The position numbers were made by a program, and so were the translations under genes. A stretch of 64,000 nt of DNA from Gracilibacillus ureilyticus (lineage in GTDB: Bacteria > Bacillota > Bacilli > Bacillales > Amphibacillaceae). Shown here in pieces: positions 51,209-56,197 of this stretch. The stretch lies in the NCBI RefSeq assembly GCF_900111195.1, contig NZ_FOGL01000009.1, positions 62,001 through 126,000 of the forward strand, in the 5' to 3' direction. Position 1 is the stretch's first letter. Each line of letters begins with the position of its first letter. The notes below the pieces were generated by a model. The model searched no databases. It saw only the letters and a list, made by a program, of their open reading frames with translations, and was not told the origin of the DNA.

Positions 51209-53176
51209 TTACACTTGAAACTTGTCAACAAGGCTTTCTAATTCTATCGACATCTTCTCCAGTCCTTTTATAGTTCCAGTTATATTATTAATTGACTGAC
51301 TAGTTTCTGCAGCGGAGGCTGCTGTTTCTTCTATTCCTGCAGCTGATTGTTCTGAGATCGCTGCAATACTTTCAACGGATTCGGATATGTCTGAACTGTT
51401 TTCTAATATTTGATGAAAGCTTTCTGATATTTTTTCCGTGCTTTTCATCATGGATATTACAGATTGCTGAATACTGTTAAAACTGTTTCCTGTCTCACCG
51501 ATTTGCTCAGTCCCTTGAACAAGCTTTTCCGAACCATCTGTTAAGGCTTTGGCTACTTCTGACGTATCTGCTTGTAACTTTTCCAGAATTGCTGTAACGT
51601 CACCAATGGAATGGGAAACTTGTTCAGATAATTTCCGTACTTCATCAGCAACTACTGCGAACCCTTTACCTTCTTCTCCTGCTCTCGCAGCCTCAATTGC
51701 TGCATTCAATGCAAGCAGATTTGTCTGTTCCGATATATTTTGAATGACTTGAATGATAGTTGTGATCTCTTTTGTCTGATTTTCCAGTTCTGTTACTTTT
51801 CTAACCGTTTCTTTAATTTCTCCATTTGTAAAATTAATTTGATCAATAGATTGTTTCATTAATTTACTGCCATTATCAGTTATTCCTTCTAATTGTTCCG
51901 CTGAGTGAAAAAGCATATTACCATTTTCATTTGCATGCTTCACTTTATATGTAAACTGATTCATTTTTTCAGCAATATTTGCAGTGGTGTCAGCCTGTAC
52001 CTCTGTTCCATCTGCAATTTCATCCATCTTTGAGGCAATCTGGTCACTGCTTAAATTGATATCCTCAAAAGCTTGTTTCATCTCAACTGTCTCTCTTCTG
52101 ACAAACTGGGATAACTGCTGTACTTTTTCGATCATATTACGTAAGGTATCCTGGGTGTTTATCACAGCGTTCACCAGAACTCCCAGTTCATCTGTACTTG
52201 TTTTTCCAGCCCATTCGTTTTTCAGGTTACCATTTTCGATTTCTGACATTATACCTGTGATTTTTTTAATAGGTTTTGTAAACCGGTCACTGACCAGCCA
52301 TGCAATAAGACCAATAATAATAGCAATAATGATTGCAATAACTAATATACTTCGGAATATCTCTTCATTAATGCTTGTTAGAAAACTTACATCCTCTATT
52401 ATTTCAATTACCCCGACAACTGTCGTTTGGGCAGGATCATATAAAGGCATATAATATTTCCATTTGTCTTTATTATTGGAAGTGATTTCTCTCCCTTCAA
52501 ACGCACCCTCAACGTTCTCCTGAGCTTCAGTATCAAGTTTTCCATCACTTTGGGCAGAGGAAATGATAACTTCTCTGTCTTTATTAATAATATTTATTCC
52601 AACCCCATCATGAAAATTGGCTATATTATTCACCACTTCCGGTTTTAGACCCGTTTGCAACGTACCAATCACTTCACCATCCGCAATCACCGGAACAAAT
52701 GCTCTTATTGTAAGTCCGCTATTTCCTGATTCCAAACCCACTATTTCATCCTTATTTAACGCCGCCTGAATTGCTTCTTTATCGCTTTTGTCATCTCCAA
52801 ACTCTGCAGGGTTATGCCCCCTGTAAAAAACCGTACCATCCACATTTCCATATTCGAATACATTCCAATCATGTTCTATTTGTACCCGACTGAAAATAGG
52901 TGTAACAGTCTCCCCTAATTTTCCCCGATCCATATTGGAGAATTGTTCTGTTAATTCTTCATCTTCTGCATATAATTTGGTTATATCCAGTAATTCATCC
53001 ATTTCTGACTGTAGCTGCTGCTCAATCATCTCTTTTGTCTCCAGTTGGCTTTTGGACATTACGGTTGTAAAACTTTCATTCGTCTTCGTAACAACTAACC
53101 AGCAGATAAGTACTGCCGGTACCATTGCTAACAATAAAAATAAGAAAAACAACTTAGATTTCATCGATTTTTTCAA
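51209..53176 (-). CDS. Methyl-accepting chemotaxis protein
   Basis: The 655-residue receptor has a first membrane helix (residues about 8-28), a Cache-type extracellular sensor (about 35-270), a second helix ([19 protein letters not shown]), a HAMP domain and the cytoplasmic signalling domain with the hairpin tip [19 protein letters not shown]. The sensor contains [13 protein letters not shown] and [19 protein letters not shown], typical of dCache/sCache. The ligand is unknown. The start is TTG 53174-53176 with GGGGGAG at six bases. An extended -10 (TGA-TATAAT) lies upstream. B. subtilis has no receptor here. Confidence 0.93.
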
Positions 53177-53284
53177 AACTTTCTCCCCCTGTAATCCTGA
53201 TTCACTAGTATTTTTTATCTATTTTTCACTTACCGAATGGAATTATATCACAAAAAAGTTAATACAAGTAGTTCCATATTAACA

Positions 53285-53314
53285 GTTCACACTTTTTGAA
53301 AAATAATGTTATAA
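53285..53314 (+). promoter_or_regulatory. Promoter of the 57-residue membrane protein gene
   Basis: TTCACA (53285-53290) and TATAAT (53309-53314) are 18 bases apart, with an extended TGT before the -10. Confidence 0.6.
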
Positions 53315-53364
53315 TGAGGGAACCATATGATGTGAGGTGAATACTAAGAGAGTTCTTAGTCATT

Positions 53365-53538
53365 ATGAATTTTTCAAAACTAACCTACTTATTTGTCCTT
53401 TTAGTTGGATTTTCCATCGGTACGTATCAGAATTATTCTAATATTTATACCCTGTCCATTATGATTTTGCTTATTATCGTGATGGTGATTTTTATCGGAA
53501 AGGATCTCCTTCAATTAAGAGATAAAAAAAAGAAATAA
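53365..53538 (+). CDS. Small two-helix membrane protein
   Basis: The 57-residue product begins MNFSKLTYLFVLLVGFSIG, has a second hydrophobic stretch (LSIMILLIIVMVIFIG) and ends with a basic tail (RDKKKK). The ATG lacks a well-placed ribosome binding site. GAGGTG stands 27 bases upstream, and a small hairpin (CTAAGA / TCTTAG) sits between the two. GAGAG about 14 bases upstream is weak. It has its own promoter and precedes the tRNA promoter. Family unknown. Confidence 0.6.
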   Translation: MNFSKLTYLFVLLVGFSIGTYQNYSNIYTLSIMILLIIVMVIFIGKDLLQLRDKKKK

Positions 53539-53552
53539 TTTTTAAATTCTTA

Positions 53553-53581
53553 TTGACATCTTGGTGATTAACTTATATAAT
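53553..53581 (+). promoter_or_regulatory. Promoter of the tRNA pair
   Basis: Perfect TTGACA (53553-53558) and TATAAT (53576-53581) with 17 bases between, about 30 bases before the tRNA-Gly gene. Confidence 0.9.
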
Positions 53582-53613
53582 ATTACTTGTCCGTTAAAAA
53601 TACATAAACACAT

Positions 53614-53687
53614 GCGGGTGTAGTTTAGTGGTAAAACCTCAGCCTTCCAAGCTGATGTCGAGAGTTCGATTCTCTTCACCCGCTCCA
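53614..53687 (+). tRNA. tRNA-Gly (anticodon TCC)
   Basis: GCGGGTG and CACCCGC form the acceptor stem. The anticodon loop is CTTCCAA (TCC), the T-arm is GAGAGTTCGATTCTC, and the CCA end is encoded (to 53687). Confidence 0.96.
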
Positions 53688-53688
53688 T

Positions 53689-53762
53689 GTCCCAGTAGCT
53701 CAGCTGGATAGAGCAACAGACTTCTAATCTGTAGGTCGGGCGTTCGAATCGCTCCTGGGACG
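53689..53762 (+). tRNA. tRNA-Arg (anticodon TCT)
   Basis: GTCCCAG and CTGGGAC form the acceptor stem. The anticodon loop is CTTCTAA (TCT) and the T-arm contains GTTCGAATC. The CCA end is not encoded. Its 3' 20 bases occur again at 54147-54166. Confidence 0.96.
53742..53761 (+). repeat. Direct repeat copy 1 (3' end of tRNA-Arg)
   Basis: This is the T-arm and acceptor strand of tRNA-Arg. It is repeated at 54147-54166 with one mismatch (CCT/CCC). tRNA 3' ends are common integration sites. Confidence 0.85.
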
Positions 53763-53767
53763 TAGTA

Positions 53768-53806
53768 AAGAACCTTGAAGCATCAAGCTTTCAAGGTTCT
53801 TTTTTA
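53768..53806 (+). terminator. Terminator of the tRNA transcript
   Basis: AAGAACCTTGAA / TTCAAGGTTCTT (12 bp) with a short loop, followed by TTTTTATTTT. Confidence 0.92.
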
Positions 53807-53913
53807 TTTTATATAGAAATGTATTTTACACCTACTGAAAGGCTGCAAGATCAGGAAGTTGTGAGCAGCAGACACAGAAACCATTAGTCAGGTTGCATTT
53901 ATAAAGAATAAAT

Positions 53914-54066
53914 CTAATCAGTTTCATTCCCATTGAAATAGTTCATACATTCTTCGCAAAATCCAAATGCGCTATCCAAGCCTGTACCACCACATTTTTC
54001 GCACTGCTCATTTACTTGAAATTCTTTTTCAGGAATATCGCTAAACAACTCAAATATATCTATCAC
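53914..54066 (-). CDS. 50-residue zinc-ribbon-like protein
   Basis: The frame starts at GTG 54064-54066 with AAAGGAG nine bases upstream. It encodes a 50-residue acidic protein with two CxxC pairs (QCEKCGGTGLD and FCEECM), a DnaJ-type or rubredoxin-like knuckle that probably binds zinc. It lies between tRNA-Arg and the repeated tRNA end, so it may be cargo of a small integrated segment. I do not recognise a family. Confidence 0.65.
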   Translation of the reverse strand: MIDIFELFSDIPEKEFQVNEQCEKCGGTGLDSAFGFCEECMNYFNGNETD

Positions 54067-54146
54067 GATATATCGCTCCTTTCCTTCTTAGTATTTCCTT
54101 GAGTGATAATTTTCTATGTAAATCATTACATTAGCTTTATTAAGTA

Positions 54147-54166
54147 GTTCGAATCGCTCCCGGGAC
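54147..54166 (+). repeat. Direct repeat copy 2 (orphan tRNA-Arg 3' end)
   Basis: GTTCGAATCGCTCC plus CGGGAC matches the last 20 bases of tRNA-Arg with a single change. No tRNA body precedes it. Together with copy 1 it bounds a segment of about 385 bases and resembles an att site. Confidence 0.8.
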
Positions 54167-54275
54167 AGGTATTTACCATGTTTTTTTATCCTTTTTTTCG
54201 CGTAATAATGTTAAATCAGTATCCCACCAAATTATCTTATACTTACTTTTATCACATTGCCGTAATAAATAAACA

Positions 54276-54312
54276 CAAAAAAACACAGCAGGTATTTCCT
54301 ACTGTGTTTTTC
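54276..54312 (-). terminator. Terminator downstream of ysnB
   Basis: AAACACAGTAGG / CCTGCTGTGTTT, with a short loop, is followed by TTTTG on the minus strand. Confidence 0.85.
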
Positions 54313-54829
54313 GAAGTGAAGTTTGATATGCCAAATCACGGATTTCCCGGCCGTCTATTGTATAGAAGTCTACCGTTACATCCGTTAAGTCTTCATTTGC
54401 GGTTAATACCGCATATGAACCTGGATGCTGAGCACGTGGAAGACGAATACTTCCGGGATTGATAAATAGCTTATTTTCTGCTTTTTCCGCCCCTGCGATA
54501 TGAGAGTGCCCGAAGCATACTACATTAGCTCCGACTTCATCTCCGCGATAGGAAATTGGCTGTAACGTAAATTTGATTTGGTGCATATGTCCATGTGCTA
54601 CAAAAAAATGAAGATCACCTACTGAGAAATTCACTTCATTCGGTAATTTGTCATCCATATCCATGTTTCCCTGTACTACATTCATACCGGATAACTCTTC
54701 ACTATTATGTTGTAACTCAGAATCACCACAATGGATCATTGCATCTACCTCATACTGGTGACGTTTTTTTATCTCCATTACTTCATCTTCCCAGCCGTGA
54801 CTGTCACTCATAATTAACACTTTCGGCAT
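54299..54829 (-). CDS. ysnB: YsnB, calcineurin-like phosphoesterase
   Basis: This 176-residue metallophosphoesterase of the MJ0936/YfcE type has MSDSHGWEDEV, MIHCGDSE, VQGNMD, VAHGHMHQIKF and CFGHSHIA, which together supply the two-metal ligands. The substrate is not known for Bacillus. It follows rdgB with 15 bases between, as in B. subtilis. Confidence 0.92.
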   Translation of the reverse strand: MPKVLIMSDSHGWEDEVMEIKKRHQYEVDAMIHCGDSELQHNSEELSGMNVVQGNMDMDDKLPNEVNFSVGDLHFFVAHGHMHQIKFTLQPISYRGDEVGANVVCFGHSHIAGAEKAENKLFINPGSIRLPRAQHPGSYAVLTANEDLTDVTVDFYTIDGREIRDLAYQTSLRKTQ

Positions 54830-54844
54830 TTGGTCCGCTCCCTT

Positions 54845-55438
54845 CTATTGTTCTCTTACCCAATTCACCAGTTGATCTAACGCTTTTCTCCGGTGGCTAA
54901 TCTTATTCTTTTCCGCCGGGGCCATTTCAGCCATTGTCCGATCACTTTCTATCGGGTAAAAAATCGGGTCATAACCAAAGCCATTGTCTCCAGCTGGTTT
55001 GTGTCCTATTTTTCCTTCACATTCGCCACGTTTAAATATAGTTAGTTCACCAGGATTGGCAACAGCCAATACACAGACAAACCGTGCTGTTCTTTTAGAA
55101 TCCGGCACACCTTCCAATCTTGACAAAACTTTTTGCAGATTAGCCTGATCATCCTTCTGTTCACCTGCATACCTTGCAGAGTATACACCTGGTTCCCCAT
55201 TCAGTGCATCCACTTCCAAACCGGAATCGTCTGCAATGACAGGAATACCAAACTTTTCACAAATTGCTTCTGCTTTGATTGCTGCATTTTCCTCAAAAGT
55301 AGTTCCAGTTTCCTCAATATCTTCGATTTCTTCTGGTAAGTCTAAAAGAGATGTCACTTTAATATTCAGTGTAGCGAACAATCCTTCGAAATCTTTCATT
55401 TTCCCTCGGTTTTTCGTTGCAATTATAATCTCTTTCAT
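54845..55438 (-). CDS. rdgB: XTP/dITP diphosphatase RdgB (YsnA)
   Basis: The 197-residue HAM1-family enzyme removes non-canonical purine nucleotides. Motifs include IATKNRGKMKDFEGLF, TTFEENAAIKAEAI, DDSGLEVDALNGEPGVYSAR, GFGYDPIFYP and SHRRKAL. It lies between rph and ysnB in the usual order. Confidence 0.96.
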   Translation of the reverse strand: MKEIIIATKNRGKMKDFEGLFATLNIKVTSLLDLPEEIEDIEETGTTFEENAAIKAEAICEKFGIPVIADDSGLEVDALNGEPGVYSARYAGEQKDDQANLQKVLSRLEGVPDSKRTARFVCVLAVANPGELTIFKRGECEGKIGHKPAGDNGFGYDPIFYPIESDRTMAEMAPAEKNKISHRRKALDQLVNWVREQ

Positions 55439-55453
55439 TTGGCGACAATCTCC

Positions 55454-56197
55454 CTATTTTATTTCCAGTTTATCGACATATGGTGAAATCGCATCTTTCT
55501 GAATTTCTACAATTTCTTTTAAACCGCCTTCTGCAAGGTCTAACATTTTCATCAGCTGCTGGCGGGAGAAAGTTGCTTCTTCCCCTGTTCCCTGAAGTTC
55601 AACAAATTCACCTTTGCCTGTCATTACTACATTCATATCGACAGCGGCTATTGCATCTTCCGCATATTCTAAATCTAATATTTCCGTGCCATCAGGTAGT
55701 ACACCAACAGATATTGCTGCTAAATAGTCCGTTATCGGTAATTTTTTCAATGTACCCTGGTCTACCAGTTTACCCAATGCAAAGACCATTGCGACAAATG
55801 CACCAGTAATGGAAGCTGTCCGTGTGCCGCCATCTGCTTGAATCACATCACAATCAATCCATACCGTTCGTTCGCCAATTGCATCCAGATCAACAACCGC
55901 ACGTAATGAACGGCCGATTAAGCGCTGGATCTCCATCGTTCTTCCTGACACTTTTCCCTTAGAAGATTCACGGATATTACGCGTTTCTGTCGCACGGGGC
56001 AGCATCGCGTATTCAGCAGTTATCCACCCTTTCCCAGACCCGCGCATAAAAGGAGGTACTCTTTCCTCCACACTGGCATTACAGATTACTTTCGTATCAC
56101 CAACTGTAATTAAGACTGATCCTTCTGCATGCTTTGTAAAATTTGTTACCATTTCAATCTTTCTTAACTGATTCACTTCTCTCCCTGATTCTCGCAT
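55454..56197 (-). CDS. rph: Ribonuclease PH
   Basis: This 247-residue phosphorolytic 3'-5' exoribonuclease trims tRNA 3' ends. It has [53 protein letters not shown] and [16 protein letters not shown]. Two tandem ATG codons (56200, 56197) follow GGAGGAAGT, and the second is better spaced and fits the MRxxGR start of the family. The frame reads 42 bases further without support. Confidence 0.97.

What the first reader, a model, noticed from the sequence alone, without database searches (positions are those of the whole stretch)
53742..54166. Duplicated tRNA-Arg 3' end bounds a 0.4-kb segment with a zinc-ribbon microprotein
The last 20 bases of tRNA-Arg(TCT) recur at 54147-54166 with one mismatch and no tRNA body. 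This is the mark of integration at a tRNA gene. The segment between holds only a terminator and a 50-residue CxxC/CxxC protein with a good ribosome binding site. No integrase remains, so it looks like a relic of a larger element or a very small passenger. The site may still be used by related islands.
Basis: partly seen in the sequence, partly recalled or inferred. Interest (0 to 1): 0.62.

Follow-up and report, generated by a model that had tools for sequence, protein, structure and literature searches.

The report
Leftover integration scar beside a tRNA
A bacterium carries a stray copy of the last 20 letters of a transfer-RNA gene close to that gene, at a spot where related bacteria repeatedly host inserted mobile elements, so it is most likely a worn-out integration scar with one tiny protein gene of unknown use left beside it.

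Summary
The last 20 bases of tRNA-Arg(TCT) (53742-53761) recur at 54147-54166 with one mismatch and no tRNA body; 100 shuffles gave none. The genus is Gracilibacillus (inferred). This tRNA 3' end is a heavily used integration site: 9 of 159 family genomes hold two copies of the core, and the other 8 all have an integrase 58-166 bp from the tRNA-proximal copy. The sister G. oryzae has an ortholog of the 50-aa protein (58-65% identity) beside the same tRNA, next to a phage-type endolysin gene.

Reading the 0.4-kb segment as the element itself is not supported. In ten real elements a terminator follows the far copy in 8 and the tRNA-proximal copy in 0; in the window it is the reverse, and the tRNA-side terminator is of the native type. 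No integrase remains, and the repeat has no extension on either side. Best reading: debris of a degraded, probably prophage-derived region at a known kind of hotspot, holding a relic attachment core and an orphan CxxC/CxxC microprotein gene. How the core came to lie beyond the native terminator is unresolved.

The parts
53614..53687 (+). tRNA-Gly(TCC)
53688..53763 (+). tRNA-Arg(TCT); its 3' end is the integration hotspot
53742..53761 (+). near copy of the 20-nt core (T-loop to acceptor end)
53767..53802 (+). terminator-like hairpin, native type (resembles the tRNA-Arg downstream sequence of 10 of 19 relatives)
53914..54066 (-). 50-aa CxxC/CxxC microprotein ORF, GTG start; ortholog in G. oryzae
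54076..54082 (-). Shine-Dalgarno-like AAAGGAG
   Evidence: read; same motif in G. oryzae
54113..54279 (.). DNA not aligned to the G. oryzae locus, holding the second core copy
54147..54166 (+). far copy of the 20-nt core, one mismatch, no tRNA body
54299..54829 (-). metallophosphoesterase gene (Metallophos_2; called ysnB here, a recalled name), conserved neighbour used to find the locus elsewhere

Best explanation
The second copy is a relic attachment core at a much-used tRNA-Arg(TCT) integration hotspot. A tyrosine-integrase element (most likely a prophage) once used this site; the integrase and nearly all cargo are gone, and later rearrangement left a 20-nt core fragment and one small gene between tRNA-Arg and ysnB. 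The 0.4-kb stretch is debris in a degraded region, not an element and not mobile. Shown: the repeat, the use of the site by many elements in relatives, the phage-type endolysin gene beside the microprotein gene in the sister. Inferred: that an integrase made this particular copy, that the microprotein gene came with a phage, and a deletion in this lineage. Not explained: why the copy lies beyond the native-type terminator.
For: 9 of 159 family genomes hold two copies of the core; in 8 of the 9 both lie on one contig, always as direct repeats; the 8 genomes other than the window's all have an integrase 58-166 bp from the tRNA-proximal copy. G038 and G091, in other families of the order, show the same layout. 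The five best matches to the G015 integrase among 101 relatives (G015, G032, G091, G070, G038) all lie beside the same tRNA-Gly/tRNA-Arg pair. Broken integrases there in G010, G036, G038 and G070 show that decay at this site is common. In G. oryzae the microprotein ortholog lies directly downstream, on one strand, of a 99-aa ORF and an Amidase_3 gene whose best phage match is 61% over 178 aa to Caldibacillus phage CBP1, beside a holin. One viral contig, L207, has a core without any T-stem extension on its left, with a hairpin and a 383-aa integrase next to it.
Against: The layout is not that of an integrated element. A terminator follows the tRNA-proximal copy in 0 of 10 real elements and the far copy in 8 of 10; in the window it is the reverse. 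The window's tRNA-side flank resembles the tRNA-Arg downstream sequence of 10 of 19 relatives at p <= 0.01 but 0 of 10 element-side flanks at that level (best G480, p = 0.018); what follows its far copy matches none of the 19 relatives at p <= 0.05. The far copy has zero exact extension and one mismatch, against 28-55 exact bases in eight element pairs. G. oryzae shows no second core within 6 mismatches. No integrase hit in 53001-55500; 11 of the 12 PF00589 matches of this genome are listed and none is on this contig. The microprotein has no match in phage records or viral contigs.
Confidence: 0.5

Rival explanations
1. Canonical collapsed element: the two copies are true attL and attR, the terminator and microprotein gene were the element's own tRNA-proximal end, and everything else including the integrase was deleted.
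For: Direct repeats at a proven site; terminator and microprotein gene are shared with G. oryzae, where a phage-type endolysin gene follows; in the viral contig L207 a terminator-like hairpin adjoins the core; in viral contigs L204 and L211 the integrase is on the other side of the core, so a lysis end could lie next to a tRNA.
Against: 0 of 10 real elements have a terminator on the tRNA side; the window's terminator is of the native type and the sequence after the far copy is not; in all ten elements the integrase, whole or broken, is tRNA-proximal.
Confidence: 0.18
2. No integration here: the 20-nt copy arose by a short illegitimate duplication of the tRNA 3' end, and the microprotein gene is an ordinary resident orphan gene.
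For: Zero extension of the repeat on both sides, native-type terminator in place, microprotein gene present in G. oryzae without the repeat.
Against: The copied stretch lies within the part of the tRNA that elements use at this very site; all 8 other family genomes with two copies have an integrase at the tRNA.
Confidence: 0.2
3. Remnant of a tandem tRNA-Arg duplication.
For: ARAGORN calls a second tRNA-Arg at the far copy in G091, G499 and G480.
Against: Those second genes mark the far ends of integrase elements; upstream of the window's far copy there is no trace of a tRNA body (p = 0.74).
Confidence: 0.04

Closest known systems
tRNA 3'-end attachment sites of tyrosine-integrase prophages and islands
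   Same: Direct repeat of the T-loop-to-acceptor part of a tRNA gene, at a site with integrase elements in relatives
   Different: No integrase, copies 405 bp apart, core of only 20 nt with one mismatch, terminator beside the tRNA rather than beyond the far copy
Cryptic or 'grounded' prophage remnants (PMC6379469, passages seen)
   Same: Loss of integrase and att function, survival of isolated genes
   Different: Almost nothing phage-like remains in the window; the phage link rests on the sister genome
13.9-kb element of G015 and 12.4-kb element of G032 at the same tRNA
   Same: Same tRNA gene and same part of it; same genus (G015) or family (G032)
   Different: Intact integrase next to the tRNA, repeats of 28 and 29 nt, terminator beyond the far copy
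DnaJ CXXCXGXG zinc domain (PF00684)
   Same: Weak match of the microprotein, E 0.0033, 18.1 bits
   Different: Below the curated cut-off of 32.7 bits; 50 aa in all

Membership tests
Integrated element at a tRNA 3' end | Direct repeat of the tRNA 3' end | tested here: met
   20 nt, one mismatch, same strand
Integrated element at a tRNA 3' end | Integrase gene, whole or broken, inside the repeats | tested here: not met
   only a 50-aa and an overlapping 33-aa ORF of at least 30 aa lie between the copies; no integrase HMM hit in 53001-55500
Integrated element at a tRNA 3' end | Element sequence next to the tRNA, native downstream sequence beyond the far copy | tested here: not met
   the reverse is seen
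Integrated element at a tRNA 3' end | Site empty or differently filled in relatives | tested here: met
   variably filled across the genus: e.g. tRNA-Arg 149 bp from the neighbouring gene in G003, integrase relic in G010, 13.9-kb element in G015
Prophage remnant | Phage genes in the segment | tested here: not met
   no PHROG match to the microprotein at E 0.001; the phage-type endolysin gene is in the sister genome only
Tandem tRNA-Arg duplication | Trace of a second tRNA body | tested here: not met
   p = 0.74; ARAGORN finds only the two tRNAs in the window
DnaJ-type zinc domain protein | Score above the Pfam gathering cut-off | tested here: not met
   18.1 against 32.7 bits
DnaJ-type zinc domain protein | Zinc binding | not testable with these tools
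   AlphaFold model too poor to judge (mean pLDDT 54.6)

The most novel reading that the evidence does not exclude
The 50-aa CxxC/CxxC protein is a new, genus-restricted family of small zinc-binding regulators that came in with a prophage lysis operon and has been kept under selection after the phage was lost, and the tRNA-Gly/Arg pair at this hotspot has been flipped more than once by the integrases that use it.
Probability: 0.08. Interest if true: 0.5.

Novelty: new member of a known kind. Interest (0 to 1): 0.27.

Why it matters
It marks one gene pair (tRNA-Gly/tRNA-Arg(TCT) beside ysnB) as a recurrent landing site for mobile elements in this family and order, with ten occupied examples and several decayed ones. 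For the window itself the message is mostly cautionary: a tRNA-end repeat alone does not prove that the stretch between the repeats is an element; the side on which the native terminator lies is a quick test.

Tried and rejected
Element or passenger reading of the 0.4-kb segment: set aside in its simple form because the native-type terminator is on the tRNA side. Tandem tRNA duplication: no tRNA body upstream of the far copy. A decayed far copy in G. oryzae: best hit 7 mismatches, or 10 contiguous bases, p = 0.12. A decayed core beyond the terminator in G010: p = 0.12. Relatives of the microprotein: 2 of 101 relatives, its own genome included; G. oryzae only, out of 53 pattern-matching stretches of genome contigs; none of 202 in viral contigs; none in 50,697 phage records at E <= 1; 5 of 397 order genomes, one being its own and four weak at E 0.002-0.006, of which I looked at two and found them in or opposite unrelated longer ORFs, the other two not examined. 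Segment DNA in phages and plasmids: no match. AlphaFold model of the microprotein: not used, pLDDT 54.6. Rfam: only the two tRNAs reach the gathering score. A 33-base match upstream of the microprotein start to a G075 gene was not pursued. Frameshift of the G. oryzae endolysin: five congeners carry 303-344-aa versions at 66-72% identity, but the overlapping 99-aa ORF of G. oryzae does not match their C-termini, so a frameshift is not shown.

Full report
Observation. The window holds tRNA-Gly(TCC) 53614-53687 and tRNA-Arg(TCT) 53688-53763. Twenty bases at the 3' end of the latter (53742-53761) recur at 54147-54166 on the same strand with one T/C difference; no other match within 3 mismatches exists in 64 kb, and 100 shuffles gave none. 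Identity ends exactly at the 20 bases on both sides. The stretch between holds a terminator-like hairpin at 53767-53802 and a 50-aa ORF at 53914-54066 on - with AAAGGAG at 54076-54082 (read).

Where it is. The window is G000:C13:62001-126000. The nearest relative held, G013, carries the microprotein gene on a contig of 215,134 bases; genome contigs gives the same gene on a contig of the same length, NZ_ML762430.1 of Gracilibacillus oryzae TD8. The genus is therefore Gracilibacillus (inferred). Gene names such as ysnB, rdgB and rph are recalled labels for the neighbours; searches show only their families and conservation.

The site is a hotspot. Of 159 family genomes searched for GTTCGAATCNNNCCYGGGAC, 131 have at least one copy and 9 have two (G000, G015, G032, G033, G474, G480, G499, G503, G531); in G503 they lie on two contigs, in the other 8 on one contig and one strand. 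I fetched the relevant stretches of all 8 genomes other than the window's (for G480 only the two ends): each has an integrase 58-166 bp from the tRNA-proximal copy. The seven with both copies on one contig span 6.6, 11.9, 12.4, 13.9, 16.3, 16.4 and 57.3 kb. G038 (integrase in several pieces) and G091, in other families of the order, have the same layout at 6.6 and 6.7 kb. Eight of the ten pairs could be extended within one fetched stretch; they share 28-55 exact bases. The five best matches to the G015 integrase among 101 relatives (G015, G032, G091, G070, G038) lie beside the tRNA-Gly/tRNA-Arg(TCT) pair. Broken integrases at the site occur in G010, G036 and G070. In viral contigs 75 stretches hold the pattern; in 14 of them no tRNA is called around it and an integrase starts 73-212 bp downstream, three of the 14 beginning too close to the contig end to show a tRNA. 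One of the 14, L207, has no T-stem extension to the left of its core, like the window's far copy; its core differs in three bases and its host tRNA is unknown.

The sister locus. In G. oryzae the order is tRNA-Gly, tRNA-Arg, hairpin, microprotein ortholog, a 99-aa ORF, an Amidase_3 gene, an 87-aa ORF, a methyltransferase, a DUF2642 protein, then ysnB, with about 3.1 kb between tRNA-Arg and ysnB. The amidase is endolysin-like (PHROG E 8.9e-53); its best phage match is 61% over 89% of its length to Caldibacillus phage CBP1, next to a holin. Amidase, 99-aa ORF and microprotein gene follow one another on one strand. DNA similarity between window and G. oryzae runs to 53810, covers the microprotein gene and its upstream (53914-54112), and resumes at 54280; 54113-54279, which holds the far copy, is not aligned there. 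In a DNA search of 101 relatives with 53810-54275, only the G. oryzae microprotein region matched well (E 1e-41); the other 15 genomes with hits gave short matches at E 1e-4 to 0.01. The DUF2642 gene is in no other of the 17 genomes. The amidase has relatives of 56-72% identity in six congeners whose loci I read; no CxxC-rich small ORF was flagged beside any of them.

The problem with a simple scar. At an occupied tRNA 3' end, element DNA adjoins the tRNA and the native downstream sequence lies beyond the far copy (general knowledge, recalled). In the window the scan finds one after the tRNA and none after the far copy. The 55 nt after the window's tRNA resemble the tRNA-Arg downstream sequence of 10 of 19 relatives at p <= 0.01 (300 shuffles; the 19 include G015, whose tRNA adjoins an element), 3 of 10 far flanks and 0 of 10 element-side flanks of real elements (best p = 0.018, G480; 1000 shuffles). 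The 55 nt after the far copy match none of the 19 relatives at p <= 0.05; among far flanks of elements the best is G474, p = 0.050 and 0.055. Hairpin terminators share composition, so these p-values overstate similarity somewhat; yet the hairpins after tRNA-Arg in G006, G026 and G031 did not match. G010 shows a comparable oddity, a broken integrase beyond a native-type terminator. So the far copy is not a plain attR, and I cannot say how it came to lie there.

The microprotein. Both orthologs keep the two CxxC pairs. Estimates of dN/dS run from 0.29 to 0.46 by four methods on 49 codons, consistent with constraint but weak for two short sequences. No sigma-70-like promoter was found on its strand in 53500-54400. 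Pfam gives sub-threshold matches only.

Orientation. In 30 genomes where both could be placed (28 loci, plus G013 and G003), the tRNA pair runs with ysnB in 26 and against it in 4 (G000, G013, G007, G024). Integrase-driven inversion is described for archaea (PMC5495485, abstract and outline seen); I found no att-like repeat that would prove it here.

Literature. Five searches gave listings in which no title or abstract start names this locus or this tRNA in Gracilibacillus; two searches listed 12 of 43 and 10 of 52 papers. Beyond listings I saw passages of PMC6379469 and abstract and outline of PMC5495485. That tRNA 3' ends are classic attachment sites, and that Listeria phage PSA uses a tRNA-Arg gene, is recalled; one search did not confirm the latter.

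Verdict. A real repeat at a real hotspot, best read as debris of integration, with the origin of this particular copy unresolved. Interest is modest.

Noticed in passing
window 53614-53763; L036, L044, L054, L045: The tRNA-Gly/tRNA-Arg pair is inverted relative to ysnB in 4 of 30 genomes (G000, G013, G007, G024); in G003 (L045) the block of chemoreceptor gene, small protein and tRNAs is flipped as a whole relative to the window.
   Followed up: partly
L085, L137, L220: Elements of 12-14 kb in G015, G032 and G474 at this tRNA; the G015 and G032 integrases are 72% identical, and the G015 one has no match above 32% identity among the 15 listed of 102 phage records.
   Followed up: partly
L139, L223, L142: Compact 6.6-6.7-kb elements in G091, G499 and G038 with an integrase and, by eye, a serine resolvase and a few other genes; in G091 and G499 the far copy is called as a complete second tRNA-Arg, as it is in G480.
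   Followed up: partly
L088 227-1567: G010 carries a broken integrase and small ORFs that look phage-like by eye just beyond the native-type terminator of the same tRNA-Arg, followed by what look like glycogen genes.
   Followed up: partly
window 53553-53581: Perfect 12-of-12 sigma-70-type promoter (TTGACA, 17 nt, TATAAT) upstream of the tRNA pair.
   Followed up: no
window 54078-54110; L239: The stretch just upstream of the microprotein start matches, at 89% over 33 bases, part of a 109-aa ORF in G075; may be chance.
   Followed up: partly
L207 2563-2582: Viral contig with a core lacking the 5' T-stem extension, with a hairpin and a 383-aa integrase next to it.
   Followed up: partly
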